Assembly: GCA_036984305.1 (NCBI GenBank)
Contig: BQWY01000001.1
Span: 62,001-126,000 of the forward strand
DNA from: Nitrospira sp.
Lineage (GTDB): Bacteria > Nitrospirota > Nitrospiria > Nitrospirales > Nitrospiraceae
Direction of reading: 5' to 3'
Length of the DNA: 64,000 nt
The position numbers and the translations under genes are program-made. Below, one piece after another: positions 22,779 to 43,008 of this stretch (the first letter of the stretch is position 1; each line of letters opens with the position of its first letter). The notes below the pieces were generated by a model. The model had not been told where the DNA came from. It saw only the letters and a list, made by a program, of their open reading frames with translations, and did no database searches.

Positions 22779-23777
22779 CTACTCTCTGGCGGGATGGAAA
22801 GGAGTGAAGAGTTCACGGTGTTCACCGAAGAATACGTTTTCAATTTGAGGTATGGCCTCACGAGCGAGGCTTGAACCGATCCCCTTCAATGCGGCTATGC
22901 GGTTCGTGGAATCCAGCAAGAATTCCCCATCTCTGGCGGAGTGTTGGTAACGATATACTCGCCTATTGCTCTCGGTATGTCCGATGAGAAGTTTCGCAGT
23001 ACCGATAGCACTTCTGGACTGGCCTAGGAGAAACATGTCGGCGAGCTTGAACGCCAGATTGGTCGTTCCTGCGTTTGCAGGAATGGCGAGGACCTCTTCC
23101 GAACATCCAATGCTGAGTATATGAATCTGGTCTTGAGGCCATCGAAGAACCCCTACTGCTTCAACGGCTGCGATTCCGACGGGATTGTTCGCCCAGATAC
23201 CGCCGTCTAGTAAAGAGATCCCATTCTGAAGAGAGTGGCAGGGCAAATATGTTGGTGCTGCGGCTGTTGCGAGGGCGATATCTACAGCACGCTCTCTCCA
23301 ATCAAGGACGAATCGCGAATGATGAGAAGTCTTAAATACATGCACTTCGCGGCGCTCTCGGTCGAAAGCAGGGATGATCAATCGCGTAGTTGATTCGGAT
23401 AGGGTTCGCTGACCGAATGCTCTTTCAAGTGCTGTGCGGAGGGCTGTTTGATTATACTTTGAAGAGAAAAGTCTGCGGGCCGAACGGACTTTGCGATTCA
23501 GCAAGCTCATGATTTGTTCACGAATGGACCGGTTGCCTCCATATTGGCCAAAGATCTTAGGCCCCTCTACTTCGTAGAAGGTAAGAATGTCTCTCGCAGT
23601 CAATCCGAGGCCGAGACCAAGCGCTATAATGCCTCCTGTCGAGGTTCCGGCGATGAGGTCAAAATAGTCGAGAATTCTCTTGCCTGTGGTCTCTTCTATC
23701 GTCGTAAGAAACGCCGCGGGCATTGTGCCCTTAATCCCACCGCCATCAATCGAAAGAATTCTTCGGAAGTGTTCCAT
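22779..23777 (-). CDS. capV: CBASS effector: patatin-like phospholipase (CapV type)
   Basis: A 332-residue patatin-fold lipase. Seen: oxyanion loop DGGGIKG (residues 11-17), nucleophile elbow GTSTGG with Ser46, and the second catalytic residue Asp191 in LLDGGIWANNP. In CBASS such effectors are switched on by a cyclic nucleotide and degrade the inner membrane of the infected cell. The ATG at 23777 has a GGAG site; the longer frame upstream only overlaps the E2 gene. It overlaps the end of the E2 gene by 32 bases. Third gene of the operon CD-NTase, E2, effector. Confidence 0.92.
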   Translation of the reverse strand: MEHFRRILSIDGGGIKGTMPAAFLTTIEETTGKRILDYFDLIAGTSTGGIIALGLGLGLTARDILTFYEVEGPKIFGQYGGNRSIREQIMSLLNRKVRSARRLFSSKYNQTALRTALERAFGQRTLSESTTRLIIPAFDRERREVHVFKTSHHSRFVLDWRERAVDIALATAAAPTYLPCHSLQNGISLLDGGIWANNPVGIAAVEAVGVLRWPQDQIHILSIGCSEEVLAIPANAGTTNLAFKLADMFLLGQSRSAIGTAKLLIGHTESNRRVYRYQHSARDGEFLLDSTNRIAALKGIGSSLAREAIPQIENVFFGEHRELFTPFHPARE

Positions 23778-24207
23778 TGTCAGTCTCCGGATGAACGCCC
23801 CCGCCCTTCCATTCGTTAGTAGAAAGCCAATCTTCGAAGTAATACAACCAGAGATAGGACCAAGGGACAATGGTCTTATCAATGAACATGTGTGATTGCC
23901 ATTCGCCCGCGCCTGGTAGATAAAGACACAGGCGCGTAGGTCTTTGCTCGTAAACGTGAGGGATCGACCGATCACCGGAGAGTCCGACTAGATCAGGGGC
24001 TAAAACGTAGACCTTTGGTGTGTACTCAGGCCGATAGTCAATCCGCAGTTGATATGACCGGCTCAAGGGAGTGGGCCTTGCGAGGAAATCCCAACGAAGT
24101 TTTTGCTTTCGGACGCTTCCTTGACCTCGACAAATTGGAGACGTCGATAGACCAAAATACTGCTGCGATACGTTAAGGCTCCTTTGTCTCGGGAAGTGCA
24201 AGATCAC
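23746..24207 (-). CDS. CBASS-associated E2-like conjugating protein
   Basis: 153 residues of the E2-fold family that accompanies short type II CBASS operons lacking E1 and JAB proteins. The active cysteine is probably Cys94 in RLCLYLPGAGEW, followed by the family pattern TIVPWSYLWLYYFEDWL and NEWKGGG. Known members attach the CD-NTase C-terminus to targets and thereby prime cyclic nucleotide synthesis; the same role is inferred here. It starts with a GTG seven bases after the CD-NTase stop; no clear ribosome site is seen, so translation may be coupled. Confidence 0.85.
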   Translation of the reverse strand: MILHFPRQRSLNVSQQYFGLSTSPICRGQGSVRKQKLRWDFLARPTPLSRSYQLRIDYRPEYTPKVYVLAPDLVGLSGDRSIPHVYEQRPTRLCLYLPGAGEWQSHMFIDKTIVPWSYLWLYYFEDWLSTNEWKGGGVHPETDNGTLPKNSFD

Positions 24208-24214
24208 CGGATCA

Positions 24215-25393
24215 TCAACGCCCGTAAAATGTGTTTGATCGGATAGGCACCGTATTCGGTCTTATATTGGTAAGGCCGAGGCCGGTTCCGACCGCAAGAG
24301 TCCCCTTCGAGCGATGCGAGTTGATGGAGCTTGTGAGGGACGACATGGCCTTCGATATCACGGTTTCGCCGAATACAGGGGATAAGGACTGTCTGATCTC
24401 ATCAAGCCCTGAAACAGAAGGAAGGTTTGCAAAGTCGGCCAGAGCCTGCTTATGCCAGGAGAAGAAGTTATCAGCTAGGCGAACGTCGTGATTCCATTTT
24501 TCTGCAAAGTTCTCATGCAAGGTGGTGTCATTCCAGATGCAGTACTGCCAAAGGCCATTCCGTAATTGTATGTCGATGAATTTCTCAGCATGACGGAAGA
24601 CTTCAATGAACAAATCAAACTCGTTCTCACAGGGGACTTTCTCTATGCAAAAGGCATAGCTCTTTGCGAGCAGCGTCGTCAGGATGATTGAAATCGGTGC
24701 GAGCGACGAATCTTTGGTGCTGAACCAAACGTCACGATGCCTCTTGCATAGCTGAACGATCCTGGGAAGAAATCCTTTGAATCTAGTCGGCGTGGGTAGA
24801 TCCTCAACTTGCCGCAAGGCCTCGACCAGATGGGATTCATGCAACAGGAGGCGAGGCTGTAGTTTGGCCCGATCTTCAAACCAAGATCGATACCCCCTCG
24901 GGTTCGAGGGTTTCCACCTATTCACTTTCTTGTCTGGGACCAGTTCGCCGCCCCTGGCGCAGGCTGGATTGTAGGTAGAAGGCGTAATGTCGAGATGGAA
25001 TTCATTGGCATAGGTGATTCTCCAGCAGCGAGACTTCTCCTCAAGCATGCTGCTATATGTCGCATTGTCACGCAGTCGATCTCCGATCAGGCGCTTCAAC
25101 TCTGACGGTTGCGCGGTAGGAGAGAATTTTGGCACGTGGCACACAAGATCCAAGTCGTGCTCTTCACTGCCCATGGGCTTTACTGTGGTACGTATGGCGA
25201 AGGAGCCCTGAGGATAGATCTCGGCTCCATGGAACAATGCGTTCTCTGATGAAAACAGCCAATCACCTACGGCCTTGTACCTGGACTCGGCGGTCTTGTA
25301 TTGCGTATCGCTAAGCTCCAGTTCCTGGCAGACGGTTTCGAGAATTCCTACCAGCTGTGACTTACGGACGCTCGAATCAATGGCTTGCAACAT
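24215..25393 (-). CDS. CD-NTase (cGAS/DncV-like cyclic oligonucleotide synthase)
   Basis: A 392-residue nucleotidyltransferase. The active-site motifs are visible: GSFAIRTTV (residues 63-71), HDLDLV with metal-binding Asp80 and Asp82, and a third aspartate, Asp135, in EFHLDITPS. It would sense infection and make a cyclic nucleotide that activates the patatin. The C-terminus ends in ...SNTFYGR; E2-CBASS synthases are conjugated through their C-terminal residue. The ATG at 25393 has a strong GGGAGGG site. First gene of the CBASS operon. Confidence 0.92.
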   Translation of the reverse strand: MLQAIDSSVRKSQLVGILETVCQELELSDTQYKTAESRYKAVGDWLFSSENALFHGAEIYPQGSFAIRTTVKPMGSEEHDLDLVCHVPKFSPTAQPSELKRLIGDRLRDNATYSSMLEEKSRCWRITYANEFHLDITPSTYNPACARGGELVPDKKVNRWKPSNPRGYRSWFEDRAKLQPRLLLHESHLVEALRQVEDLPTPTRFKGFLPRIVQLCKRHRDVWFSTKDSSLAPISIILTTLLAKSYAFCIEKVPCENEFDLFIEVFRHAEKFIDIQLRNGLWQYCIWNDTTLHENFAEKWNHDVRLADNFFSWHKQALADFANLPSVSGLDEIRQSLSPVFGETVISKAMSSLTSSINSHRSKGTLAVGTGLGLTNIRPNTVPIRSNTFYGR

Positions 25394-29092: not shown

Positions 29093-30037
29093 TCAGCCCT
29101 TCGGAGCCGGCTTGGCGTACAGCCGCCCTCTAGTACGTTCGTCGCGGAACACATTGAGGAGTTCAGCTCCGCGTGAACTCAGCTCGACGTACTCAATCGA
29201 ATCATCCCAATCCCAGCCCTCGTAAGAGGTAAACTGGTCAATGTTTAAGAACTTGAAGATACCGTATACGACCAGCCACCAGTAGGCTGTATCTGTTGCG
29301 GCATTCCCCCATTTCTTGAAAATAGGCGCCATGAGGTCAACTGGGTTCACACCTGAGTGCCACCGCCGGTGCCGGGTACGGGCGGCAAACGACACCAAAT
29401 CTCCGAGGACAACCAGGCGTCGCCTACCATCTCTGAACTCGCATTCATCCAACGTCTGGCGCAGAGCCAGCACTTCATCGTACACGCTGCGGGGAGCAGG
29501 ACCGAGCTCACCGATTCGCACCACAATCTGCGTAGCCGCGGTGTCAATGTCCGCCTCGATTCTACTGCCATCCTTACGTCCAGCCGTTGGACGGTAATTT
29601 GCCGTGAGAAGCCCTTCAAGGTCGCTGGGGGTTCGCAGTAGGCTATTAAGAGGCCTAGGTACTACTAAGAATGTCCGTTGGTGACCCAGGCCACCCATAA
29701 ATACGCCAGCCTCGAAAAGAACGTTATCTCGCACGGTCATCGTGGTCGGTTGTGTAGGTACTTGCCTGCTACCCTTGGAGTTGTGTTGCTCTTGGATCAG
29801 GAGAATGTCGTCCGCGGCAAAGACGAATACCCCGAAGTCGTACTCCTTAACAAGGCGTACGATTTGATCGAGAAGTAACTGACCTGGTCTGAACGCCTCG
29901 TCCCACACGGTCACGGCCGCCTGAGGAGCCTTGGCGAGAAGAGCATTCTTGAGTTGTCGCGCCAGTCCAACGCTGTTGGAAGATGAGCCTATAAACACTC
30001 GCGCTAGTCGTCCTACTCTGTGTATACGACTTGGCAT
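29093..30037 (-). CDS. CAP12/PCTIR-type TIR domain nucleotide-binding protein
   Basis: 314 residues. The N-terminal 145 residues have the CAP12-type TIR pattern: ARVFIGSSSNSVGLARQL, FGVFVFAADD, then RDNVLFEAGVFMGGLG. Such domains in bacterial immunity bind nucleotides and many destroy NAD+. The C-terminal half (residues 180-314) is not recognised; it has a Trp-rich stretch (DTAYWWLVVYGIFKF) and may be a sensor. It reads towards the middle att site and is the first gene of element 2. No strong ribosome site precedes the ATG. Confidence 0.82.
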   Translation of the reverse strand: MPSRIHRVGRLARVFIGSSSNSVGLARQLKNALLAKAPQAAVTVWDEAFRPGQLLLDQIVRLVKEYDFGVFVFAADDILLIQEQHNSKGSRQVPTQPTTMTVRDNVLFEAGVFMGGLGHQRTFLVVPRPLNSLLRTPSDLEGLLTANYRPTAGRKDGSRIEADIDTAATQIVVRIGELGPAPRSVYDEVLALRQTLDECEFRDGRRRLVVLGDLVSFAARTRHRRWHSGVNPVDLMAPIFKKWGNAATDTAYWWLVVYGIFKFLNIDQFTSYEGWDWDDSIEYVELSSRGAELLNVFRDERTRGRLYAKPAPKG

Positions 30038-30148
30038 TGCAATTCCATTCAGGAGCGGTTGCCCACGTGCCAGTTGGTCAAGGGAACATAAGCCAGCAGA
30101 GGCGAGCCGTGAGCGGGGGCCCGCCCACTACACAGATTCAATAGCCTA

Positions 30149-33100
30149 CTACGTCGCCCGTGGCTTCCTACCGCTGACCCCCCAAATCAATTGTTGAAGC
30201 GGGTCCGGTTCTTTCTTTCGAAAATCGACCCAGGTATTGATTTCCAGGAAGATTGGTAGTCGAGGTACCTTCGGCGTGTCTGCCAATAATACTGGGACGA
30301 CCGGACATCCTCGTTGAGTGAATTTTTGAAGTAGCATGGAGATTTCCCTGCTTTGCCAGGGTCCCGTTCCATTGGCTCCAACGAACACCGCAGCCGATCG
30401 TATGTTGTCTATTTGCTCCCCCATTTGCTGCATCCACGGAAGCCCTGGTTGCAATTGTTCCTCATCAAGCCAGGGCAGAATCTGCTCATTCCTCAGCCGC
30501 CTCGCTATCGTTTTGACGACAGGCTTGTCCGAACTGTTGTGACACAGGAATACGTCAAAATCATCCGATGCGATCTTGCCTTGCATCGCTGTTCGAGCGA
30601 TTTCACGCTGGCGTTGCCTGTCCGCAGCCGAGTCAATGTCGAAGGTCACTGACGCATGAACCTGAGCCGTCACCGGAGCTTCCAAGAAAATGATAGTCTC
30701 GTCACACACAGGACATTGTATACTATTGAATCCTCGCTCTTTCCGACGCGTGACTTGCTCATTGGTGAATACCTGTCCGCAATCGGGGGTAGGGCAGGAG
30801 ACGATGCGTCTTTTTTCAACGCTGCCTGGAAGTGCTTTTCGAGACAAATGTGTGTCAACGTACTGCTCGAACTGCTGTCTGGTTTCCTGAGTTGCCGTTT
30901 GATCGAAGAATACTGTTAGCTCGCCACGCCCCTCCCCCGTTTCGTGACATATTATTCCGCAGACACTCCGATTTTTTGTCGAGAACTTCACAGAATTCTT
31001 CCACATCGCCTTTTTTGCAAAAATGTTGCTGTGGGACAGTCGAACAACCAGCGTGGCATAAATATTCTGGATGGCGCCCTCGAATTGGTAGACGGTAGTT
31101 TTCCCCTGCAAGTCCGGCAGTTCCGGATTTTCACGTGTAAGCTGGGATGGGAAAACCAGAAGTGTTCCGTCCGCACTGTTCTCACGAAAGGCGATTTCAT
31201 GGCGCAAGAGTTCCTCAATGGTCGCAAGCACTAGTAATTCTTCCTGGTGACGGTCCTTAATCCGCTCATCATTGGCCAGGCGCAGTTCTCCTAACCGTAG
31301 GCGCTCCTCATTAATGCACCCCAAACCATCCGGCTCATCCTTTGCGGCATTGGCCATCGCGGATGCGTAGGCATCGCGTAGCTCTGGCTGTAGAAGAATA
31401 AAGTTTCCAAAGTTTAGCCTTTGGATCAGCCCGCGTGATTCGATGAGACCAATACAAACATTAAAATCCCCTCGCAACTGATCGGAAGAACTGGCTCCGC
31501 TTGAGAGCTGATATGAGCGGTAGAGATCATTAAATGTGGAGAGAAGCCTTCCCGACTCCTTTTCAGCAACCAGGAAGGTCTTGATGTTTTGAAACAGCTC
31601 CGTTGAGCTGACTTGAGGGAGCGTCTCCCAGTGGATTCCTCGGCGGATCGCGTCCGCCAGCGCAGAAATGTGCCAGCCTTCTTTTGCGCTCGTTTTGAAA
31701 TATTGGCTAAAGCCGCATTCCTCCATCAATCCGTCGATGCGGTCGCTGCTGACACCGATCGCTCCCACATCCATTCGCGCGGCGATGAGAAACTTGGTTA
31801 TTGGACGAGTTGTGTCGCCAAGGACCTGAGCCGCTTGTCGGATAGCCTTGTCCCAGTACCGCACGCCCGCAAATGGGTCGGTCTGGCTCCTGGAATCAAA
31901 GACGATCAGGGCTAGTGCAACTTCGTTTAAATTGAGTTGATGAATTAGTCGATAATCTGGTTGACCAGCCAGATCCCATAGAAGCGTCTCTCGAGTCTCC
32001 GTGCGACCGCGGTCATCAGTAAACTGAGTATTCTCGAAAACCCACACTCGCCGTCCATGCGTTGATCCTGTCTCTTTCCACCGCTCCCCGGTTAACACTA
32101 GTGCGAGACCCGACTTTCCAACCCCAGTATCGCCGACCACTACCACTTTGGAGTTACGATAGAGATGCTGTTCTGCCCTGGATGACTTTCCCGACAGTGA
32201 TTCAACATCGATATTCCACAGCCGGACTACCCTATCCTTGTTGCCTAAAGTTGCAAGCGAATTCGATCGCGGGTTGAATGCGATGCCAGATGTTGGGACT
32301 AACACGTTGGCCGCTTCTTCTCGCAGAATCCCAACCGTCTGGTAGGTGTCAACCCGCCAGAACCGAATCGTGTTGTCAAAGGATTTCGATGCAAGTAAGG
32401 AACCGTCAGGGGAGAAGGATATACTGCCGATCCCCTGGCTGTGTCCTTCAATCACGGTCACAAGGCGACCGGTCTCTGCCTCCCAAACGCGGATTGTACC
32501 GTCGGCTGAAGATGAGGCGATCGTCCTGCCATCGGGCGCCCATGCAAGACCTAAGACCGCCTCCACGTGACCGACAAGTACCGCGGGCGCTTCTGGTTTC
32601 GCGACATTCCAAAGCCGAACGGTCTGGTCTTCTGAACCAGACGCGAGACGTCCCCCATCAGGCGACCATGCCAGATTATGAACTCCACCAGAATGGCCGG
32701 TGAGCGTTCTGACGGCCGTCCCATCGATCGGGCTCCAAAGTCTAATCGTCTTGTCGTCGGACCCAGAAGCGATGAGATCCACGCTTGGAGACCAGGCCAA
32801 GCTCAGCACCCACGACTCATGCCCCTTAAGGTCTCGCAGCTTTTTTCTGGCGACCGCGTCCCAGATTCTCAAACTGTTGTCATTAGAACCTGACGCAATC
32901 AGCGAACCTGCAGGAGGTGACCAGGCCACGCAACTCGTCCAAAATGGAGCGTGACCTGCGCATTCCCAATATGGTCTGCTCGAGTCGGCCGCCCAGAACC
33001 AAATGGCCCCGCCCTGAGTTGGACAAGCCAATTTCATTCCATCGGGAGTCCAAGCAATCCTGGTTATCTGACCGCCATAGGTGGGCTCAAGGGTGGCTTT

Positions 33101-33154
33101 GATCGACACCCCCTGAGGTATTTCATTGTGAGGCGATTTCTTGGCTCGTTTCAT
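30149..33154 (-). CDS. WD40 - Ras/Roc-type GTPase - zinc ribbon - TIR multidomain protein
   Basis: 1001 residues. About seven WD40 repeats form a beta-propeller (residues 20-325; e.g. GSDDKTIRLW, GSEDQTVRLW, SSADGTIRVW). A Ras-like GTPase follows with P-loop VVGDTGVGKSGLAL (about 346), switch II LLWDLAGQ and a TSAKEG loop, but with AARMD in place of NKxD. A helical linker, a four-cysteine zinc ribbon (SCPTPDCG and CPVC, about 800) and a C-terminal TIR domain (DFDVFLCHNSSD, about 868; candidate catalytic Glu in GPWQSREI) complete it. The propeller probably senses, the GTPase switches, and the TIR acts, perhaps on NAD+. ATG 33154 is preferred; TTG 33193 is possible. Confidence 0.88.
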   Translation of the reverse strand: MKRAKKSPHNEIPQGVSIKATLEPTYGGQITRIAWTPDGMKLACPTQGGAIWFWAADSSRPYWECAGHAPFWTSCVAWSPPAGSLIASGSNDNSLRIWDAVARKKLRDLKGHESWVLSLAWSPSVDLIASGSDDKTIRLWSPIDGTAVRTLTGHSGGVHNLAWSPDGGRLASGSEDQTVRLWNVAKPEAPAVLVGHVEAVLGLAWAPDGRTIASSSADGTIRVWEAETGRLVTVIEGHSQGIGSISFSPDGSLLASKSFDNTIRFWRVDTYQTVGILREEAANVLVPTSGIAFNPRSNSLATLGNKDRVVRLWNIDVESLSGKSSRAEQHLYRNSKVVVVGDTGVGKSGLALVLTGERWKETGSTHGRRVWVFENTQFTDDRGRTETRETLLWDLAGQPDYRLIHQLNLNEVALALIVFDSRSQTDPFAGVRYWDKAIRQAAQVLGDTTRPITKFLIAARMDVGAIGVSSDRIDGLMEECGFSQYFKTSAKEGWHISALADAIRRGIHWETLPQVSSTELFQNIKTFLVAEKESGRLLSTFNDLYRSYQLSSGASSSDQLRGDFNVCIGLIESRGLIQRLNFGNFILLQPELRDAYASAMANAAKDEPDGLGCINEERLRLGELRLANDERIKDRHQEELLVLATIEELLRHEIAFRENSADGTLLVFPSQLTRENPELPDLQGKTTVYQFEGAIQNIYATLVVRLSHSNIFAKKAMWKNSVKFSTKNRSVCGIICHETGEGRGELTVFFDQTATQETRQQFEQYVDTHLSRKALPGSVEKRRIVSCPTPDCGQVFTNEQVTRRKERGFNSIQCPVCDETIIFLEAPVTAQVHASVTFDIDSAADRQRQREIARTAMQGKIASDDFDVFLCHNSSDKPVVKTIARRLRNEQILPWLDEEQLQPGLPWMQQMGEQIDNIRSAAVFVGANGTGPWQSREISMLLQKFTQRGCPVVPVLLADTPKVPRLPIFLEINTWVDFRKKEPDPLQQLIWGVSGRKPRAT

Positions 33155-33724
33155 CGCAAAAACGTCTTTCTTGCGACGTCGGAGGACGTTCAAGGCAGCT
33201 AGGCACTATGGCCGAATCGTGCGTGGGCCTAGCATAGTGGCCGACAATGTAGATCCCGTTCATAATCGGAGTCAATCTATGGCCGAACCAAATACAACCA
33301 TTTTAGTGGGTTGGAACGGGTGGGTTGCGTTTGTGAATGCGCAACATCGGTTAGCCTTAATGTTCGCAAGCCACGTATGAAATACAACCTAACTAAATGC
33401 CGTCGCATGAACTTCTGGGCCTGACGGAATAAACACTTGGGGGGATTGAGCACACTTCTTATCCTTGTTCGTAGAGCCAACCAACCATCCTGGACAGCTG
33501 TAAGGATCCCCTTGAGGATCTAGGAAAGACTCCCAAGGCCGAGTCCCCGGAAGATGCTGCCCGAGCGGTCGGTCCCCGAAGTCCGTTTGAGGCAGATCAC
33601 AGTATCGAAGCTAGAGGCCGAATTGGCTCCCTGCGGAAGCGCAGCGGCTCCGAAATGCTTTCCGTTCAAGTGATAGTGAGGTGGTCTATGATGTCGAGCA
33701 TGCCTTCCCGTCGCCCGATCATTG
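33155..33724. other. Intergenic region, nothing recognised
   Basis: About 570 bases between the WD40-GTPase-TIR gene and the next TIR gene. It has a short palindrome near 33504-33523 (AAGGATCCCCTTGAGGATCT). No gene is seen. Confidence 0.4.
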
Positions 33725-34636
33725 TCATAGGGCATTCATAAAAGCCGCGAGCGTGCGCTCGATCGGTCCTATCGAATTCTTATTCCTCAGCGATGCGTAG
33801 ATGTCCCCGCCAAGGTCGGCTGGCATCTTTGAGCCCGCTTGTCGGATGATCAACACGTTTCGCTTCCCTTTCAAGCCGATAAAGTATCCCGCTTCAAAGA
33901 CCACGTTATCGCGCGGAACAGCAAGCTCGGCCTGACCATGGTCAGCAAGATCGTCATCCTTGGTGAACAGAAAGATGCCGCCGACCGAACGAGTTGCAGC
34001 TTGGTCGATTTGCTCGAGTATCGTACGGCCTGGAATAAAGTCTGACTGCCAGTCTAATACCTTAGCCCCAAGACTCTGCAGGTAGCGTTTGATGGCTGCG
34101 GCCGTACCTTCTGAGGCACTTGAGTAACCAAGAAAAACATCACACCGCTCACATAGGAGTCTGCGCCAGTAGTCGAACGGAACACGGAAGCTCTCCGTGT
34201 GAAGCCATTCAACGTTGGATTTGGAGTCAAATTCGCCGACATACCCGCCAAAGCTCTTGTCAAATACCACGCGAGGGAGAACATCGCGTTGCATCAGGAC
34301 GAGAGTAGGCAGTCGGAGCGTGTGAAATAGCGCGCCTTCGTAATGATTGAATTCGGTCGGAAGCAAAACCTCCTTCCCTTCTGAGTCGGCGAACCTCCAC
34401 CGCGGCATTCCAAGCACTGCAGCGCCGGTGCACCGCCGAGCGATCTCATCTGCGTCCCGCGGGTGCCAGGACTTGCCAGAGGCCAACCCGGGCTTTCCCA
34501 GCGGGTTGGTAAAAATCTCAGGAACGTAGCCCAGCTTTTCGATCTCCTCGACGATGCCCCACTTTAGCCGGTTTAAATTGTCCGGAAGCCAGTGATCTGC
34601 GGGCAGACTGATATAGATACGGCGTACTATCGCCAT
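33725..34636 (-). CDS. Two-domain CAP12-type TIR protein
   Basis: 303 residues. The C-terminal domain (about 165-300) is a CAP12/PCTIR TIR fold: CDVFLGYSSASEGTAAAIKR, GGIFLFTKDDDL, then PRDNVVFEAGYFIGLKG. The N-terminal domain (1-150) starts RRIYISLPADHWL and has DADEIARRCTGAAVLGMPRW, which suggests a deoxyribosyltransferase-like or second TIR-like alpha/beta fold. It is likely a nucleotide-processing or sensing immune protein. It stands alone on this strand with long flanking gaps; no clear ribosome site. Confidence 0.78.
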   Translation of the reverse strand: MAIVRRIYISLPADHWLPDNLNRLKWGIVEEIEKLGYVPEIFTNPLGKPGLASGKSWHPRDADEIARRCTGAAVLGMPRWRFADSEGKEVLLPTEFNHYEGALFHTLRLPTLVLMQRDVLPRVVFDKSFGGYVGEFDSKSNVEWLHTESFRVPFDYWRRLLCERCDVFLGYSSASEGTAAAIKRYLQSLGAKVLDWQSDFIPGRTILEQIDQAATRSVGGIFLFTKDDDLADHGQAELAVPRDNVVFEAGYFIGLKGKRNVLIIRQAGSKMPADLGGDIYASLRNKNSIGPIERTLAAFMNAL

Positions 34637-35237
34637 GATTCTACTTCACTCTTCATACCAATCAGCGCAACCTCAGCTGAGGGACGTTTCATGGAAGCTG
34701 AACACGCTCGTCATGCGCGGAAGGCAAACATCTCGATGAAGGGAGATTAGGCTACTTGCGTATGAACTCTATTGTCAATGCAGCTGATCTCTGCACCTCA
34801 AACAACGGCAAGCGGAAAGTAGGCGAAGCGGCAAAGTTGTTATAGCAGGGAAGGTAGTACTGTTACCGAAAGCGAGATCCCCCCATTTCCATCGAATACT
34901 GAAGTCCCAGGCTGCCCGGACCCTAGTTCAAGTGACGTCGCATCGAGCGGGGAGCGATTTCCTGCAGCTGGACACTCCATCAGGCCCTCAGTTTTTAAGC
35001 TCGAATGGGACATTAAGGGCCATAACTGGTCTGAAGTGCATATACCGTTGGCCAGGAGTTCGCGCCATCAAACTACATGCGTAATGCGCCGTGCGTAACC
35101 CAAAATAGGAGCATTTCTTCGGCCTTCACACTCGCTCACTGCGCCTGTACTGCTTTGCCTTTCTTGGGTGAAAGCGTAGAATTCCGGCTCAGGCTGGATC
35201 GCAGGGTCATGCATGCGTCAGTAATAGGCTAACCTAA
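34637..35237. other. Intergenic region between divergent genes
   Basis: About 600 bases between the two-domain TIR gene and the DUF4062 remnant. It probably holds promoters for both directions, but none is clear. No gene is seen. Confidence 0.4.
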
Positions 35238-35450
35238 GTGAGCTCCTCCATGGGGACGATCTTTCTCTCCTCGACGTGCGAAATCTCAAAGATTACCGAC
35301 TGGCGGTCATTGACGCTTAGGGAAAGCGACTACTACATCATCGCGCTGGAAGATTACGTCTCGACAGACCAGCAGCCTTCCATCCTGAGACGGCAAGGCC
35401 CACTGCCTAATGGCAATGGAGATCGCAAACATGAGTCAGCTTCACAGTGA
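35238..35450 (+). pseudogene. Truncated, frameshifted DUF4062 gene
   Basis: The frame from GTG 35238 reads SSMGTIFLSSTCE, the start of DUF4062 proteins, and later RESDYYIIALEDYVSTDQQP, also typical. The stretch between does not fit in this frame, but in the +1 frame it reads NLKDYRLAVIDA, exactly what the family has there. So two compensating frameshifts are present. After about 35373 similarity ends. The remnant precedes and overlaps the TPR-patatin gene, and may have been its original partner. Confidence 0.75.
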
Positions 35451-37995
35451 GACCATCCGTCGAGCTAAAGAGGTTTCGAAGGGACAGAGCATCGCTCCAC
35501 CTGAAGCCCTCCAGCTGGTGCGAGCATTGAAGAAAGAGCGGGCCTTTGGTTATGCGAGGAAACTCCTCGCCGAGGCTCGTAAGGATCCACAGGTCCTCAA
35601 TGACCCGCCCCTACGGCGTAAGTTCGCTCAGGAACATGCCTTGTGTACGTATAAAGATCCTGACCTGCAACCTGACCAAAAGCTGGACCAAGCACTGATG
35701 ATCTTACAGGTAGAGGATAATCCCACTACAAGTGTCGATCAGGAAACCTTAGGGCTGGCCGGCTCAATCTATAAACAGAAATGGCAGCGAGATGCCCAAA
35801 GGCAGCATCTCATTCGTTCTCTGGCCTATTATTACAAAGGCTATCGACAGAAGGTCGAGGGAGATTACGGCTACACAGGCATCAACGCGGCCTTTGTCCT
35901 CGATGTCCTGGCTCAACAAGAGGCTCTCGAGGCCTCGCAAGCGGGAACGGACTCAGGTATCGCCGAAATGCGACAGGAAGAAGCCAAGCGGATACGAGAA
36001 GATATCGTCTCCGTTTTGCCTGGGCTTGTCGATGTCCCTGCAAACAAATGGTTGTCAACCACCTGGTGGTTCCTCGTCACAGTTGGAGAGGCCTATTTCG
36101 GCCTGGAGCGGTACAACGAAGCGCTGACGTGGTTAAAGAAGGCGACGGCATTGCCTGATGTGGCTGATTGGGAACGGGAAGCGACAGCCCGTCAACTGGC
36201 ATGGCTAGCCCAACTCAAGCACAACGGCTCCACGACGACCGAAGATTCACAAGCTTGGAAGGTCTTGCAAGAGTTCTTAGGGCACAATTTTGCGGCTGCG
36301 CGCTCGGTGCTGACAGGAAAAGTGGGCCTGGCGCTATCGGGCGGGGGGTTCCGTGCTGCCCTGTTCCACATTGGCGTGCTGGCTAAGTTGGCGGAACTGG
36401 ACATGCTTCGTCACGTTGAAGTGCTGTCTTGCGTGTCAGGGGGGGCGATCATTGGTGCGCACTACTACCTTGAGGTGAGGCAGTTGATGCACACCAAGAC
36501 CGATCGTGAGATGACGCGTGACGATTATGTTGCGATTGTCCAGCGGATCGAACGCGATTTCCTGGCCGGTGTGCAACGGAACATTCGGACGCGGGTTGCG
36601 GCAGAGTGGACGACCAACCTCAAAATGCTCCTGCTGCCAAACTATTCTCGGACGATGCGTGCAGGGGAACTGTATGAGCGAGAGATCTTCGCCAAGGTGG
36701 ACCATGGAGGAAAGGACAAGGTCCGCTGGCTCAACGAGTTGAAGATCCAGCCAAAAGGGGAAACCGCGCCATTTTTACCGAAGGACCACAACTGGCGGCG
36801 AAACGCCAAAGTGCCCATCCTAATTCTCAACGCCACGACACTGAATACTGGGCATAACTGGCAATTTACGGCTACCTGGATGGGGGAGCCGCCTTCAGGC
36901 GTGGATAGTGAAGTCGATGGTAATGACCGGCTTCGTCGAATGTATTATGAGGATGCGCCCAGCCAGCACAGGAAAGTCCGGTTGGGCCATGCCGTGGCTG
37001 CGTCAGCCTGTGTGCCTGGATTATTTGAGCCCCTCGCTCTTGCCAAGCTGTACCCCAACAAGGTCGTACGACTCGTCGACGGAGGAGTGCATGACAATCA
37101 AGGGATCGTCGGGTTACTGGATCAGGGCTGCACTGTGCTGCTGGTCAGCGACGCGAGCGGGCAAATGGATACGGAGGATTATCCCAGCAACGGTCTCCTG
37201 AGAGTCCCGTTACGCGCGAACAGTATTCTTGGGGCGAGGGTCCGTTCGGCTGAATATGATGAATTAGAAGAGCGACGACGGGCATCTCTACTCCGAGGCC
37301 TGATGTTCGTACACCTGAAGAAAGATCTCGATGCGAAGAAGGTGGATTGGCTGCATTGTCCCGATCCTTCGGAGCAACAACGTTCAACTCCATTAACATC
37401 GTATGGGATCGAGAAAAGCCTTCAGCGGCAGTTAGCGGCGGTTCGAACGGACCTCGATTCGTTTTCTGACACCGAAGCCTATGCGCTGATGATGAGTGGA
37501 TATCGGATGACCCAATCCGCGTTTCCACCATCCGTGACGGGCTTTTCCACGTCCAAAGAACGGTCGAAATGGCAGTTCCTCGTGATGGAAGAAGTGATGC
37601 AGCACGTGGAGCCTGAGCCGTGGCTCGTTCGACAGTTGGAAGTGGCCAAGTATATCCCATTCAAAGTCTGGATCCTGTCTCGCGAACTTCAGATCGTTGC
37701 TGCGGTTGTGAGCCTCATGGCCCTCATCGCCTTGTTCTTGTCACGCGATCGCTGGTGGTCGGTCTCCCTTTTAACGATAACGTTCGGCGGCATTGCCATT
37801 GCGCTCCTCACCTTCCTCGCCGGTCGCATTTTCGGACAGCGCGTGGTCCGCATTCTCAACTATCAAAAGACTCTACAAGATATCGCCATCGGTTTTGGCA
37901 TGGCGACAATTGGGTTTGCCTTCGCTCGGCTACATCTGCACGTATTTGACAAGTGGTTTCTCCGACAGGGGCGAATCAAGCAGCCAGGTACTTGA
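35431..37995 (+). CDS. TPR/TRAF-binding-like - patatin - membrane protein
   Basis: 854 residues. The N-terminal 285 residues are helical TPR-like repeats resembling the MAP3K TRAF-binding domain (WFLVTVGEAYFGLERYNEAL, then WLKKATALP). The patatin domain has GLALSGGGFRAALFHIG (oxyanion loop), the nucleophile elbow in LSCVSGGAIIG and the catalytic Asp in RLVDGGVHDNQG. Two or more C-terminal membrane helices (about 745-790: IVAAVVSLMALIALFL, ITFGGIAIALLTFLA) anchor it at the membrane. Likely a membrane lipase that acts when the TPR part is engaged. The ATG at 35431 has GGAG upstream. Confidence 0.85.
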   Translation: MSQLHSETIRRAKEVSKGQSIAPPEALQLVRALKKERAFGYARKLLAEARKDPQVLNDPPLRRKFAQEHALCTYKDPDLQPDQKLDQALMILQVEDNPTTSVDQETLGLAGSIYKQKWQRDAQRQHLIRSLAYYYKGYRQKVEGDYGYTGINAAFVLDVLAQQEALEASQAGTDSGIAEMRQEEAKRIREDIVSVLPGLVDVPANKWLSTTWWFLVTVGEAYFGLERYNEALTWLKKATALPDVADWEREATARQLAWLAQLKHNGSTTTEDSQAWKVLQEFLGHNFAAARSVLTGKVGLALSGGGFRAALFHIGVLAKLAELDMLRHVEVLSCVSGGAIIGAHYYLEVRQLMHTKTDREMTRDDYVAIVQRIERDFLAGVQRNIRTRVAAEWTTNLKMLLLPNYSRTMRAGELYEREIFAKVDHGGKDKVRWLNELKIQPKGETAPFLPKDHNWRRNAKVPILILNATTLNTGHNWQFTATWMGEPPSGVDSEVDGNDRLRRMYYEDAPSQHRKVRLGHAVAASACVPGLFEPLALAKLYPNKVVRLVDGGVHDNQGIVGLLDQGCTVLLVSDASGQMDTEDYPSNGLLRVPLRANSILGARVRSAEYDELEERRRASLLRGLMFVHLKKDLDAKKVDWLHCPDPSEQQRSTPLTSYGIEKSLQRQLAAVRTDLDSFSDTEAYALMMSGYRMTQSAFPPSVTGFSTSKERSKWQFLVMEEVMQHVEPEPWLVRQLEVAKYIPFKVWILSRELQIVAAVVSLMALIALFLSRDRWWSVSLLTITFGGIAIALLTFLAGRIFGQRVVRILNYQKTLQDIAIGFGMATIGFAFARLHLHVFDKWFLRQGRIKQPGT

Positions 37996-38206
37996 CCATC
38001 CTTTTATCGCCAGAGCCGAGCGTCTCATAAGGGTTCCCCCAACACTTCTCAGATTTGTTCACCGGCAAAAGTGAGACCGGGAACGGAGTTCCGCAAAAGC
38101 TCGGGAGTGAAAAAGTTAGCGAGCTTCTTCTCAGCACCTTATCAATTGGCTAGCCTCGTCCAAGCGGCGGTGGCAAGCCACATGGCGACCGCCCCCCTCG
38201 CAAGCC
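37996..38206. other. Intergenic region before the STAND remnant
   Basis: About 210 bases with no recognised feature. With the remnant at 38207-38449 and another 400 bases to 38857 it forms a gene-poor stretch of decayed sequence. Confidence 0.4.
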
Positions 38207-38449
38207 ATGAACATTCCACAAGTGCCAGCGCCTACCATCACCTGGGACATCGACAAGCTGGGCTCGCCTTATCCAGGCTTATTCCACTTCACGTGCAACC
38301 ACGCCCCGGCTTTTTTTGGACCCGACGCGGAAGTGCGGGCGGTCCTGGATCGCCTGCGCTTGTCGGAATGACATTTTCTCCTCATCAGTGGGGCGTCCGG
38401 GACCGGTAAGTCCTCGCTCGTGGCCGCCGGGGGTCTTACCGCACCCTGA
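38207..38449 (+). pseudogene. STAND NTPase gene remnant
   Basis: Reading from ATG 38207 gives GSPYPGLFHFTCNHAPAFFG, then AEVRAVLDRLRLSE, a TGA stop, then in the same frame HFLLISGASGTGKSSLVAAG and another TGA. This is the start of a novel STAND NTPase (nSTAND1) with its Walker A loop, broken by an in-frame stop. It resembles the block PYRGLLYFREEDAPFFFG of the intact TIR-STAND protein at 39933. The stretch 38450-38857 beyond it holds nothing recognised. Confidence 0.82.
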
Positions 38450-38857
38450 GCAAGGTGGCCCGGCGGGAAGGAAGAAAAATCTAGCTTTCGCTGGTCTCGT
38501 TTTCTGGGAGGAACGTCAACTACAACCCGCCTCTCTTCTTATAGGATGGCAAGCTCCACTCCAATGTCATTCTCGTCTGACTCCTTTACCGTCAGGCACA
38601 AACACAGACACACGTTTTATGATCGTGGCAGCGTGTTCGCCTCACCATGCCGTGCAGGGGCATATTTGTGCCAAGAGTCATCGGTTGAAAGAGCCCAGTC
38701 GCAATGTGTACAGCGGGGAAATGCAAGCATTTATCCAATCCATGTTGACACCTCGCCTTCCCAAAAGTAGCCTCTTTGTCCACAGCTACTAAAAATCAAT
38801 GCTGGGTAGGAAACCGCATGAGGCTACTGTGCCGAGTTTTCTCTAGTTGGAGGAGAC

Positions 38858-39787
38858 ATGAAGAAATATCTAGGATATGTCATCGACGATAGCACTAGCT
38901 TGCGCGATATGTTAGTTGAGCAGCTTCGCTTCAACGATTTCGAGGCTCACGGTTATGCGGAAGCAGAGACCTTCTTGAGGGATGTATTCTCTGCCACAAG
39001 CCTGAATCTTCCCGATTTGATAGTCGTTGACTTGAAGTTACGACCCAGCAGGATGCAAGGAATTAATCTGGTGAGTGAGTTGGCAGATCGAGAGGTGCCA
39101 TCGGAGATTCTGGTGATTTCGGGAAACCAGCCTTCAAAGGATCTAGTAGAAGCTATTCGTATTGGGGCAGCTACTTCAGCCTCAAAACCATTTGACAGCA
39201 TTTTCAAACTTACTGATACCATGGTGCGATTGGCAGAGATCGGAAAAAGGCGCAGAAGACAAAGTTTGGGAAAGGGCAGAGGATGGGAGGAGTTGGATAC
39301 AAGCCGAGAACATCGGCCCGTGTTCCTTAGTCACAGTAGCCAAGACAAACGAATAGCGCATGGTATTCGACGCAACCTGGAAGCGCGGGATATTGGGGTT
39401 TGGTATGCTCCTTCAATATTGGACGTTGGCGATAAGTGGAGAAATCGCATCGAGAATGGCATTGATCAGGCGACTGTTTTCATCGCCCTTATTACCGAAG
39501 CTTACGTTGCATCACCTATCTGTTTGGGGGAACTCACAAGGTACTTCCGTCGCATTCAGGTGCAAGCGGATAATCAGTTGCTGCTACTGCCGGTACTGGT
39601 GTCCTCATCCACCGCTATTAAGAGAAATGATCTAATTCGTCCAATCTTTGATGGTTATCATTATCTGGATCTTTCAACTCAATTCATCGATGGATTAACG
39701 GTGCTCTTAGCTCGTATCCAAAGATCACTCGGAGGTCATGTTAAGGAAGGAGTTTCCCGCGTAGAGCATAAGGGCTCACACGTTTAG
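38858..39787 (+). CDS. Receiver (REC) - TIR domain fusion protein
   Basis: 309 residues. The N-terminal receiver domain (1-125) looks intact: acidic pair Asp10-Asp11, phosphoacceptor Asp58 in LIVVDLKL, Ser88 in VISGN and Lys110-Pro111. A basic linker (KRRRRQSLGKG) leads to a TIR domain (about 152-300): PVFLSHSSQDKRIAHGI, VWYAPSILDVGDKW, and the candidate catalytic Glu225 in SPICLGELTRYF. Phosphorylation by a histidine kinase could therefore gate TIR activity. No kinase is encoded nearby. The start has a strong GGAGG site. I know no well-described system with this architecture. Confidence 0.88.
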   Translation: MKKYLGYVIDDSTSLRDMLVEQLRFNDFEAHGYAEAETFLRDVFSATSLNLPDLIVVDLKLRPSRMQGINLVSELADREVPSEILVISGNQPSKDLVEAIRIGAATSASKPFDSIFKLTDTMVRLAEIGKRRRRQSLGKGRGWEELDTSREHRPVFLSHSSQDKRIAHGIRRNLEARDIGVWYAPSILDVGDKWRNRIENGIDQATVFIALITEAYVASPICLGELTRYFRRIQVQADNQLLLLPVLVSSSTAIKRNDLIRPIFDGYHYLDLSTQFIDGLTVLLARIQRSLGGHVKEGVSRVEHKGSHV

Positions 39788-39932
39788 CCCTGGTGGATTA
39801 GTGGGCAGGAATCTTCTAGCTGACGAGTGAATTCCTCACGGGGTCACTAGGGGAGAATTGGACCTTTGACACGACACTTCTGGAGGTCACGTCCTAGCAT
39901 GCTTTTAGCTTCCTTGATCTAGATCACCGCAT

Positions 39933-42557
39933 ATGCCCACTGCTGACTTCGATGTCTTTCTGAGCTACCACTGGCGGGATCATGCCGAGGTGGAGCAGCT
40001 AGCGCGGCGGTTGCGCGAGCAGCAGCTCACCGTCTTCCTCGACCGGTGGTACCTGACCCCGGGACAATCCTGGCCGAGTGCCTTGGAAACTACTCTAGCG
40101 CACTGTCGAGCCGTCGCCGTCTGCATCGGGCAAGGCGAGATGGGCCCCTGGCAACAGCGCGAACTCTATCTCGCGCTGGAGCGTCAGGTCGCCGCGGAGC
40201 GGACAAGCGGCAGCTACCCGGTCATTCCAGTTCTGCTACCAGGCTCCGAGCCACCCCTTGGATTTCTGAGTCAACACACCTGGGTGGACTTCCGAGACCG
40301 TGCCGCCGATCCCCTCCTGCTCACCACACTCGTTCGAGCGATTCGCGGGCAGTCCCCTGGTCCCGATGCGCAAGAGACGATCGGAAAGACCTTCGCCGCC
40401 ATTTGCCCCTATCGGGGCCTGCTCTACTTCCGTGAGGAGGACGCGCCGTTCTTCTTTGGGCGGGCCACCGCCGTCACGCACCTCATTCACGCCGTGAGCC
40501 AGCATAGCCTGGTGGCCGTCGTTGGAGCTTCCGGCAGCGGCAAGTCGTCTGTCGTTCGGGCGGGCTTGGTCCCGGCACTGCGACCGAGTCATGCGCCCGT
40601 CTGGGAGGTGGCGACGTTCGTGCCGACCGATCGTCCGTTCCAGGCGATGGCGGCCGCGCTCATGCCGTGGCTCGAGCCGGACCTTCGCGAGACCGACCGG
40701 TTGATCGAGACGACCAAGCTGGCCGATGCCCTGCGCCACCGGCACACCGTCCTTCGCGATGTCGCGGACTCCGTGCTCAAGAAGCAGCTTGGCACGGACC
40801 GCCTCTTGCTCGTCGTGGATCAGTGGGAGGAACTGTGCACGCTCTGTCAGGACGAGCCGGCGCGCCGGGCTTTCATCGATCAGGTGCTCGACGCCACCGC
40901 CGCAACCAAATTAAGCGTCGTGCTCACTCTACGAGGGGATTTTTATGACCGGGCGATCACCACCTATCGGCCCCTATCCGATCGCGTGCAAGGGGCCTTG
41001 GTGAATCTCGGACCGATGACCCAGGAAGAATTGCGTCTGGCCATCGAGGAGCCGGCACGACAGGTGGGGCTGTCGTTTGAACCGGGGCTGGTGGAGCTCA
41101 TCCTGGAGCAGGCCGGTGACGAACCGGGCCATTTGCCTCTGGTCGAATTCGTGCTGCGCCAGCTCTGGGCGCACCGCCGCGGCGGGCAGCTGCATCACGA
41201 AGCCTACAAGGCCATGGGACAGCTCGAGGGCGCCATCGCGAATAAAGCCGAATCCCTGTACGTGAACCTCTCGGAAGCCGATCAACGCAAACTGCAACAG
41301 ATTTTCTTGCGGCTTGTCCGACCGGGAGAGGGTGAGGCGGATACCAGACGTCGCGCGACGTTGGTGGAAGTGGGAGAAGACGTTGGGGCGCTTGCGAAGC
41401 GGTTGGCCGATGAGCGGTTGTTGGTGACCTCACGGCTCGCGGGGAGCGCGGAGGACTCGCTCGAAGTGTCGCATGAAGCCTTGATCCGCCATTGGGACCG
41501 GCTCAAACGGTGGGTGGACGCCGATCGGCGATTCCTTGCCTGGCACGAGCGCCTGCGCGCCGCGGTCGAACAGTACCAAGAGAGCCAGAAGAGTGAGGAC
41601 GCTCTACTGCGCGGGTTTGCCTTGACCGAGGCGCGTGACTGGCTCGAGCAGAAGCCCGAGTATTTCTCCGCCCTCGAACGACACTTTATCGCAGCAAGCC
41701 AACGCTGCAAGGTACGAAGGCACGTGGTAGCGGCCGCGACCGTGGGCCTCGTGCTCCTGCTGGTAGGGGGACCATTCGCGTGGATGTCGAAGGAGGGCTT
41801 GACACCGGAAGATGCAGTTTTGACGGCTCAATCCCACTTCATGAGCATCGCCATTGTCCCAGAGGTACAACGGATTGAAAGTGGCACTTTCCTGCAGGGA
41901 GACAGCCATGGCCTTGGGATCAAAGATGAGCAGCCTCTGCGCGAAGTCAGGATTAAGCGCTTTGCCATAGGTAAGCACGAAGTCACCTTTGACGAATACA
42001 AGCGATTTGCCCTCGCCACGAAACGACCACTGCCTCATGATGAATATTGGGGACACGGGCGCCGGCCGGTGATCAATGTCTCGTGGGAAGATGCGAAGGC
42101 CTATGCGAAGTGGCTGTCGCAGGAGACCGATCAGCGATACCGACTGCCGACGGAATCCGAATGGGAATATGCCGCTCGGAGTATAGCCATCAACAAGGAT
42201 GAGATCTGGGCCGGAACATCCGAGGAGGCGCAACTCAAAGAGTATGTGGTGTACGAAGCAAAAAACACGGAGCCGGTTGGGAGCAAGAAAGCCAACGGTC
42301 TCGACCTGTATGATATGAGCGGCAATGTCTGGGAATGGGTGGAGGATTGTTGGCACGAGAATTACAGGGGGGCTCCGACGGATGGATCTCCCTGGCTACA
42401 AAGCGAGGGCGGAGGTTGCCGCCTGCGCGTGATTCGGGGCGGCGCCTGGAACGTTACCCCCCCAGGGGCCTTGCGTACGTCATTCCGGATCTGGAGCCCC
42501 GCCGGCGATCGGAATGAGGACGTGGGCTTCCGTCTTGTCCAGGACGTAGATTTCTAA
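39933..42557 (+). CDS. TIR - STAND NTPase - transmembrane - FGE-fold protein
   Basis: 874 residues. The TIR domain (1-140) starts DFDVFLSYHWRDH, with candidate catalytic Glu77 in GPWQQRELYL. The nSTAND1 NTPase has Walker A GASGSGKSSVV (198-208) and Walker B LLLVVDQWEEL (291-301). One membrane helix lies near 595-615. The C-terminal FGE-sulfatase (C-type lectin-like) domain shows RLPTESEWEYAAR, DMSGNVWEWVEDCW, then RGGAW and DVGFRLV; the FGE catalytic cysteine pair is absent, so it more likely binds a ligand. Probably an NLR-like sensor whose external or lectin-like end detects a trigger and whose TIR responds. Confidence 0.9.
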   Translation: MPTADFDVFLSYHWRDHAEVEQLARRLREQQLTVFLDRWYLTPGQSWPSALETTLAHCRAVAVCIGQGEMGPWQQRELYLALERQVAAERTSGSYPVIPVLLPGSEPPLGFLSQHTWVDFRDRAADPLLLTTLVRAIRGQSPGPDAQETIGKTFAAICPYRGLLYFREEDAPFFFGRATAVTHLIHAVSQHSLVAVVGASGSGKSSVVRAGLVPALRPSHAPVWEVATFVPTDRPFQAMAAALMPWLEPDLRETDRLIETTKLADALRHRHTVLRDVADSVLKKQLGTDRLLLVVDQWEELCTLCQDEPARRAFIDQVLDATAATKLSVVLTLRGDFYDRAITTYRPLSDRVQGALVNLGPMTQEELRLAIEEPARQVGLSFEPGLVELILEQAGDEPGHLPLVEFVLRQLWAHRRGGQLHHEAYKAMGQLEGAIANKAESLYVNLSEADQRKLQQIFLRLVRPGEGEADTRRRATLVEVGEDVGALAKRLADERLLVTSRLAGSAEDSLEVSHEALIRHWDRLKRWVDADRRFLAWHERLRAAVEQYQESQKSEDALLRGFALTEARDWLEQKPEYFSALERHFIAASQRCKVRRHVVAAATVGLVLLLVGGPFAWMSKEGLTPEDAVLTAQSHFMSIAIVPEVQRIESGTFLQGDSHGLGIKDEQPLREVRIKRFAIGKHEVTFDEYKRFALATKRPLPHDEYWGHGRRPVINVSWEDAKAYAKWLSQETDQRYRLPTESEWEYAARSIAINKDEIWAGTSEEAQLKEYVVYEAKNTEPVGSKKANGLDLYDMSGNVWEWVEDCWHENYRGAPTDGSPWLQSEGGGCRLRVIRGGAWNVTPPGALRTSFRIWSPAGDRNEDVGFRLVQDVDF

Positions 42558-42837: not shown

Positions 42838-43002
42838 ACAGGTGTTATTACAGTGTTAGAAATTTAGACAAATCCCATCAGAGGGAGACAAAACGAGGCA
42901 AACAGAGGAAAGGCGCAAACCGTGACTGGAAGCAGGCTGGAGAGGAGATGACCCAAGATTATACGTACTTGAGCCATCCCCTCCTTTACAATCCCGGCTT
43001 CG
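42838..43002 (+). repeat. Element right-end repeat, copy 2
   Basis: The second copy of the 165-bp right-end sequence (first at 28836-29000; about 12 mismatches by hand count). Here it runs on into the complete tRNA-end repeat. Confidence 0.88.
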
Positions 43003-43008
43003 GCACCA
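42990..43008 (+). other. attR: tRNA-Leu 3'-end direct repeat
   Basis: AATCCCGGCTTCGGCACCA, identical to the tRNA-Leu end at 8636-8654. It marks the right boundary of the island; core-genome genes resume after it. Confidence 0.9.

What the first reader, a model, noticed from the sequence alone, without database searches (positions are those of the whole stretch)
29093..42557. Five TIR-type proteins of five different architectures in one 14-kb cargo segment
Within element 2 five genes carry TIR-family domains, each fused differently: CAP12-type with an unknown C-terminus (29093), WD40-GTPase-zinc ribbon-TIR (30149), N-domain-CAP12 (33725), receiver-TIR (38858) and TIR-STAND-TM-FGE fold (39933), plus a TPR-patatin membrane lipase. 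This looks like a TIR immune island, and the parts could share a nucleotide signal or act as layered sensors. That they work together is inference.
Basis: partly seen in the sequence, partly recalled or inferred. Interest (0 to 1): 0.88.

Follow-up and report, generated by a model that had tools for sequence, protein, structure and literature searches.

The report
TIR island around a TPR-S lipase
A mobile island in a Nitrospira-family bacterium carries five NAD-cutting-type TIR proteins beside a membrane lipase whose sensor domain has the fold of the human stress kinase ASK1's regulatory region; the same lipase sits next to TIR genes in many unrelated bacteria, so it is probably switched on by a small signal that a TIR makes, and this can be tested directly.

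Summary
Five ORFs at the stated coordinates carry TIR domains above Pfam cut-offs, in five architectures, all with the catalytic-type Glu. They are cargo at one end of a 34.4-kb integrative island in tRNA-Leu, bounded by a 19-bp att repeat, which also carries a short type II CBASS.

"One TIR immune island sharing a signal" is only partly supported. The gene with real comparative evidence is the sixth one: TPR-S–patatin (35410-37995). Its homologues in several phyla have a TIR gene nearby in 11 of 21 loci (0.41 expected; 0 of 85 methylase genes in the same genomes). An nSTAND1 gene is often there too, and in Catalimonadaceae one chain is TPR-S–patatin–TIR. In a Nitrospira relative its neighbour 41 bp downstream is a TIR–nSTAND1–FGS protein like 39933. 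The modelled TPR part matches the ASK1 regulatory region (Z 18.4) and the lipase matches CBASS CapV/CapE (Z about 19).

Best reading: a Thoeris-like two-step system. The TIR–STAND–FGS sensor makes an NAD-derived messenger that activates the TPR-S–patatin membrane lipase. The N-domain–CAP12 gene may belong (one independent co-occurrence). The receiver-TIR is unique, and the other two TIR genes look like separate defences. The signalling is inferred, not shown.

The parts
8568..8654 (+). tRNA-Leu (CAG), integration target; its 3' end (8636-8654) is one att repeat
   Evidence: ARAGORN; repeat
8685..9842 (-). tyrosine integrase of the island
   Evidence: Pfam Phage_integrase 3e-26
42990..43008 (+). 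second copy of the 19-bp att repeat; right end of the 34.4-kb island
   Evidence: exact repeat of the tRNA 3' end
29093..30037 (-). CAP12-type TIR (13-148) + C-terminal domain of unknown fold, 314 aa
   Evidence: Pfam PF10137 2e-22; phmmer to Cap12 structures 9lmq/7un8; E109
30149..33193 (-). WD40 propeller - Roc/Ras GTPase - Cys pairs (zinc ribbon) - TIR, 1014 aa
   Evidence: Pfam; Calothrix homologue 52%
33725..34636 (-). unknown N-domain - CAP12-type TIR, 303 aa; divergent neighbour of the TPR-S lipase gene
   Evidence: Pfam PF10137 4e-28; PADLOC PDC-S35 3e-18; 68.6% full-length homologue on a Rhizobium plasmid beside TPR-S genes
35410..37995 (+). TPR-S sensor - patatin phospholipase (Ser343/Asp557) - C-terminal transmembrane segments, 861 aa; proposed effector
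   Evidence: Pfam TPR-S 1e-17, patatin 3e-16; model pLDDT 81, pTM 0.84; Z 18.4 to the ASK1 regulatory region, about 19-20 to CapV/CapE and patatins
38858..39787 (+). receiver domain (acidic pair D10/D11, D59, and the S/T and K motif residues present) - TIR, 309 aa
   Evidence: Pfam Response_reg 1e-11, TIR_2 2e-19; motif read-out
39933..42557 (+). TIR - nSTAND1 - one hydrophobic segment - FGS (FGE/C-type-lectin fold), 874 aa; proposed phage sensor and messenger maker
   Evidence: Pfam; paired homologue next to TPR-S-patatin in Nitrospira KAN-bin2
22779..23975 (-). CapV-type patatin of the island's separate CBASS
   Evidence: PADLOC CBASS phospholipase effector 4e-96
23746..24207 (-). CBASS E2-like protein
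   Evidence: PADLOC E2 8e-54
24215..25393 (-). CBASS CD-NTase (SMODS)
   Evidence: Pfam SMODS 3e-17, PADLOC cyclase 6e-113

Best explanation
The segment is a defence cargo cluster whose functional core is a Thoeris-like, TIR-signalled lipase system. The TIR-nSTAND1-FGS protein (39933-42557) detects a phage product through its C-terminal lectin-fold FGS domain, oligomerises through the STAND ATPase, and its TIR domains cleave NAD+ to an ADP-ribose-type messenger. The ASK1-like TPR-S domain of the 35410-37995 protein binds that messenger and releases or assembles its membrane-anchored patatin lipase, which degrades membrane lipids and aborts infection. The N-domain-CAP12 TIR (33725), divergently placed, is possibly a second messenger maker or regulator for the same lipase. 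The receiver-TIR (38858) would be a further input that depends on phosphorylation. The WD40-GTPase-TIR and the CAP12-X gene are most likely independent defence genes that share the island. Shown: domains, retained catalytic residues, TIR linkage of the lipase family, folds. Inferred: signal, its identity, trigger, lipase activation and abortive infection.
For: Linkage: 33 loci encode relatives of the lipase in Nitrospirota, Pseudomonadota, Acidobacteriota, Bacteroidota, Myxococcota and others. A TIR gene lies in 11 of 21 loci against 0.41 expected, P 3e-15; 9 of 21 without two weak or broken TIRs, P 2e-11; 8 of 20 with one near-identical pair also reduced, P 7e-10. 0 of 85 N6-methylase genes in the same set of genomes lie within 10 kb of a TIR (Fisher 1e-9). 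The association is scattered over the lipase tree, at least 4 changes forced. nSTAND1 genes are also there in the window, L071, L081, L082, L089, L095 and L096. Pairing: Nitrospira KAN-bin2 has the lipase (55%) and, 41 bp downstream, TIR-nSTAND1-FGS (39%; FGS 54%). Fusion: one 1249-aa chain is TPR-S-patatin-TIR (L095). An Aliarcobacter plasmid has TIR then lipase 52 bp apart. NAD/ADPR context: TIR-NUDIX + macro gene (L069), SIR2-TIR (L089). Further set: 8 of 16 Nitrospirota TPR-S clusters have a TIR within about 10 kb, 0.76 expected. Structure: TPR part Z 18.4 to ASK1, unrelated TPRs 13.3 or less; patatin part Z 19-21 to CapV, CapE, PlpD, cPLA2. Eight TPR-S polar or aromatic residues (Y81, K82, E112, Y141, N159, R196, T224, Q262) and the lipase S343/D557 are invariant in 23 homologues. 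Precedents: TIR-made 3'cADPR, His-ADPR and N7-cADPR activate SIR2, TM-macro and caspase effectors (PMC12847820); FGS proposed as invader sensor on STAND proteins, with TIR at the N-terminus in some (PMC8195603).
Against: About half of the lipase loci have no TIR nearby, and three genomes (L087, L093, L094; drafts that may be incomplete) have no TIR_2 hit at all, so TIR is not obligatory. In the window the lipase and the TIR-STAND gene are separated by 1.9 kb and the receiver-TIR, and differ in G+C (55% and 62%). The TIR-STAND half is closer to a Caballeronia plasmid protein (59%; no TPR-S gene annotated near it) than to the Nitrospira one (TIR 30%, STAND 33%), so the pair is a re-assembly, not a conserved operon. 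No biochemical data; messenger binding by TPR-S is a published prediction only (Burroughs & Aravind 2020, recalled, paper not held).
Confidence: 0.55

Rival explanations
1. A passive defence island: each TIR protein is a stand-alone abortive-infection NADase with its own sensor, collected by the integrative element; closeness to the lipase has no functional meaning.
For: Different architectures, long intergenic gaps and different G+C. The complete set was found nowhere else. The genome is TIR-rich with other clusters. The island also carries CBASS and R-M genes. Single-gene TIR defences exist, e.g. SpbK (PMC12847820).
Against: The lipase family is linked to TIR genes far above chance and above an R-M control, a TPR-S-patatin-TIR fusion exists, and the lipase with TIR-STAND-FGS recurs in Nitrospira. 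The rival stays likely for 29093 and 30149.
Confidence: 0.3
2. TPR-S is a protein-binding scaffold, as in ASK1, not a nucleotide sensor: TIR proteins and lipase form one complex and the lipase is activated by contact.
For: Best TPR match is the ASK1 regulatory region; STAND proteins assemble complexes; the L095 fusion fits either model.
Against: TPR-S neighbours include ADPR-handling domains (NUDIX, macro, SIR2), invariant polar residues in TPR-S suggest a ligand site, and the related CapV/CapE lipases are activated by nucleotides (PDB titles).
Confidence: 0.12
3. The CAP12-type TIRs (29093, 33725) are extra effectors of the island's CBASS, answering the cyclic nucleotide of the CD-NTase at 24215.
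For: TIR domains closest to Cap12/PycTIR structures; CD-NTase 3.7 kb from 29093 on the same strand.
Against: No STING, SAVED or cNMP-sensor domain in either; both far below NCBIfam's Cap12 cut-off (66 and 48 bits against 450); the CBASS already has its own CapV patatin; on the Rhizobium plasmid the 33725 homologue has TPR-S genes and no annotated CD-NTase nearby.
Confidence: 0.05

Closest known systems
Thoeris (types I, II, IV)
   Same: TIR protein and a sensor-effector protein in one locus; the TIR is expected to make an NAD-derived messenger that switches on the effector
   Different: Sensor is an ASK1-like TPR-S domain and effector a membrane patatin lipase, not SLOG-SIR2, TM-macro or caspase; the TIR is fused to nSTAND1-FGS; no messenger measured
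TPR-S / NAD+-signal systems predicted by Burroughs & Aravind (2020, from memory)
   Same: PF20308 TPR-S domain with TIR genes; ASK relationship
   Different: Here specifically TPR-S-patatin with TIR-nSTAND1; linkage tested against controls and ASK1 similarity shown on a model. Whether that paper lists this exact pairing could not be checked
CBASS CapV/CapE patatin effectors
   Same: Patatin fold and Ser-Asp dyad; nucleotide-activated lipases
   Different: N-terminal TPR-S and C-terminal transmembrane segments; no CD-NTase partner of its own
STAND-FGS conflict proteins and AP-GTPase-TIR proteins (PMC8195603)
   Same: TIR-STAND-FGS and GTPase-TIR architectures are of these described classes
   Different: Linked here to a TPR-S lipase; the WD40-Roc-TIR order is one further variant
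Detocs (REC-effector two-component defence, from memory)
   Same: An intact receiver fused to a nucleotide-consuming effector
   Different: TIR instead of a nucleosidase; no histidine kinase or decoy receiver was identified beside it

Membership tests
Thoeris | TIR-domain protein encoded next to the effector | tested here: met
   Two TIR genes directly downstream of the TPR-S-patatin; linkage in 11 of 21 homologous loci
Thoeris | effector with a described Thoeris architecture (SIR2-SLOG, TM-macro, caspase-like) | tested here: not met
   Effector is TPR-S-patatin-TM; no ThsA match in PADLOC
Thoeris | TIR makes an ADPR-type messenger that activates the effector | not testable with these tools
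   Needs biochemistry; only the catalytic-type Glu was checked
TPR-S (PF20308) proteins | TPR-S domain above the curated cut-off | tested here: met
   64.9 bits against 27.6
TPR-S (PF20308) proteins | fold related to the ASK1 regulatory region | tested here: met
   Z 18.4, rmsd 4.3, 254 residues aligned; next TPRs 13.3 or less
Patatin phospholipases | GGGxR loop, Ser in VSGG, Asp in DGG | tested here: met
   310-315, S343, D557; invariant in 23 homologues
CBASS Cap12 (TIR-STING/SAVED) | STING or SAVED sensor fused to the TIR | tested here: not met
   No Pfam hit outside the TIR in 29093 and 33725; NCBIfam Cap12 scores far below cut-off
Short type II CBASS (separate, 22779-25393) | CD-NTase + E2 + effector | tested here: met
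   PADLOC cyclase, E2 and phospholipase profiles
STAND-FGS proteins | STAND NTPase with intact P-loop plus FGE-type C-terminal domain | tested here: met
   nSTAND1 2.7e-120, GASGSGKSS at 198, FGE-sulfatase 1.5e-52

The most novel reading that the evidence does not exclude
Several TIR sensors of different input type (lectin-fold STAND, phosphorylatable receiver, N-domain-CAP12, perhaps the WD40-GTPase) feed one NAD-derived messenger into a single ASK1-like TPR-S lipase, a many-sensors-to-one-effector immune network and a bacterial counterpart of the ASK1 signalosome.
Probability: 0.15. Interest if true: 0.88.

Novelty: new variant of a known kind. Interest (0 to 1): 0.62.

Why it matters
If right, it adds a further effector class (a TPR-S-gated membrane lipase) to TIR-messenger immunity and gives a biochemical handle on the TPR-S domain, the bacterial relative of the regulatory region of human ASK1 (MAP3K5). 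It makes the question 'does the ASK1-type TPR fold bind an NAD-derived nucleotide?' directly testable with two bacterial proteins.

Tried and rejected
Receiver-TIR relatives: full-length search gave only receiver hits or TIR-only hits; linker+TIR found nothing else in 396 genomes at 1e-10; plasmids and viral contigs none. N-domain-CAP12: none in 296 Nitrospirota or 385 Alphaproteobacteria at the set thresholds, one on a Rhizobium plasmid. Viral contigs gave nothing for 29093 or 33725 and one partial TPR-S hit. Single-sequence model of 33725 was poor (pLDDT 39) and was not used. Pfam found nothing in the C-terminus of 29093 or N-domain of 33725. Literature for TPR-S, DUF4071 and TIR-patatin-STAND gave no paper describing this system; the key 2020 J Bacteriol paper is not held. 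SMODS as linkage control gave too few sites; N6-methylases were used instead.
Full report
OBSERVATION. The window lies in a 4.35-Mb genome of the phylum Nitrospirota. Its family includes G177, which search for related loci shows to be Nitrospira sp. KAN-bin2, placed in another genus. The six ORFs are at the stated coordinates and Pfam confirms every TIR domain above its curated cut-off. The 30149 protein has a Roc/Ras-type GTPase. All five TIRs keep a Glu at the catalytic motif position: E109 and E248 in RDNVxFEAG, as in Cap12; E950, E225 and E77 in the W/C..E-type motif. These genes are cargo of a 34.4-kb integrative island between tRNA-Leu 8568-8654 and 43008, with a 19-bp att repeat and integrase. 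About 27 TIR sites in the genome give 0.083 expected in this interval, but the genome has three more TIR clusters, so TIR clustering is a habit here.

THE GENE THAT MATTERS. An AlphaFold model from 23 homologues is good (pLDDT 81, pTM 0.84). Its TPR part aligns to the ASK1 central regulatory region with Z 18.4, well above other TPRs (13.3 or less). Its second half aligns to cPLA2, PlpD, patatin and the CBASS lipases CapV and CapE with Z about 19-21. The Ser343/Asp557 dyad and eight polar or aromatic TPR-S residues are invariant, and two C-terminal hydrophobic segments suggest membrane anchoring.

LINKAGE TO TIR. One scan of 84,980 species genomes with the lipase alignment gave 33 loci in many phyla. 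With whole-genome TIR counts as expectation, 11 of 21 loci hold a TIR gene where 0.41 were expected (P 3e-15). Leaving out one TIR without Pfam support (L076) and one broken fragment (L092) gives 9 of 21, P 2e-11; also reducing the near-identical pair L081/L082 gives 8 of 20, P 7e-10. As a defence-gene control, 0 of 85 N6-methylase genes in the same set of genomes lie within 10 kb of a TIR. The label is scattered on the lipase tree (7 changes, at least 4 forced by well-supported branches), so the association arose or was lost repeatedly. In a separate look at all TPR-S genes, 8 of 16 Nitrospirota clusters have a TIR within about 10 kb, against 0.76 expected; these genomes were picked for strong TPR-S hits and include the window itself, so this set is not random.

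WHAT THE NEIGHBOURS ARE. In Nitrospira KAN-bin2 the lipase is followed 41 bp downstream by a TIR-nSTAND1-FGS protein, then a MAP3K-like TPR-S protein, two TIR proteins and a TIR-WD40 protein. Separate TIR and nSTAND1 genes flank the lipase in Methylomicrobium, Methylicorpusculum and Flavobacterium; Spirosoma has TIR-nSTAND1-WD40 and a small TIR; Catalimonadaceae has TIR, nSTAND1 and then a TPR-S-patatin-TIR fusion. Desulfobacterales has TIR-NUDIX and macro genes, and an Aliarcobacter plasmid has TIR and lipase 52 bp apart. These are the partners expected for an ADP-ribose-type signal.

THE OTHER TIR GENES. The N-domain-CAP12 protein has one 68.6% full-length homologue, on a Rhizobium plasmid. 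There too it is divergent to a cluster with two TPR-S genes, a SLATT membrane protein, a muramidase and a CapV-like patatin. Two loci are suggestive only. The WD40-GTPase-TIR homologue on a Calothrix plasmid has its TIR in a separate gene and no TPR-S annotated nearby. The TIR-STAND half of 39933 is 59% identical to a Caballeronia plasmid protein with a WD40 C-terminus, while its FGS domain is 54% identical to the Nitrospira one: sensors are swapped. The receiver-TIR is unique among 396 genomes; its receiver residues look intact, so phosphorylation is a possible input. Nothing supports 29093 as part of the system.

MECHANISM. By analogy with Thoeris, where TIR-made 3'cADPR, His-ADPR or N7-cADPR switch on SIR2, TM-macro or caspase effectors (PMC12847820), and with the proposal that FGS domains on STAND proteins sense invaders (PMC8195603), I propose: phage product - FGS - STAND assembly - TIR NADase - messenger - TPR-S - patatin - membrane damage. 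Every step of this chain is inferred; what is shown is the domains, retained catalytic residues, linkage and folds. About half of the lipase loci lack a nearby TIR, and three genomes have no TIR_2 hit; other signal makers or trans-acting TIRs must be allowed for.

MEMBERSHIP AND NOVELTY. It works like Thoeris but is not filed there: the effector architecture differs, and the messenger is untested. Each domain architecture is of a described class, so this is a new variant of a known kind. The CAP12-type proteins fail the Cap12 test (no STING or SAVED). The island's true CBASS is the separate short type II locus 22779-25393.

Noticed in passing
window 22779-25393: A short type II CBASS (CapV patatin, E2-like protein, CD-NTase) in the same island
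   Followed up: partly
window 15787-22430: Type IIG restriction-methylase (Eco57I/TaqI type, PADLOC 2e-284) beside an HKD/PLD-Snf2 helicase
   Followed up: no
G000:C1:3644151-3660880: Three TIR hits repeat at a constant 10.64-kb offset: an apparent tandem duplication of a TIR cluster, second copy with shorter frames; could be an assembly artefact
   Followed up: no
G000:C1:574000-588600 (L055): A second TPR-S cluster in the same genome: TIR, TIR-nSTAND1-like-WD40-like (1416 aa) and a 492-aa TPR-S protein
   Followed up: partly
L095:9974-13723: TPR-S-patatin-TIR in a single 1249-aa protein (Catalimonadaceae JC749), a compact candidate for biochemistry
   Followed up: partly
L069:4744-8860: TIR-NUDIX fusion, a macro-domain gene and a second TPR-S gene upstream of the lipase
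   Followed up: partly
window 26052-26969: GHKL-type ATPase (weak HATPase_c, weak DrmA N-terminal similarity) between the CBASS and TIR genes, role unclear
   Followed up: no
G000:C1:3628859-3629944: A related integrase (48%, one stop) about 15 kb from the 3.644-Mb TIR cluster
   Followed up: no
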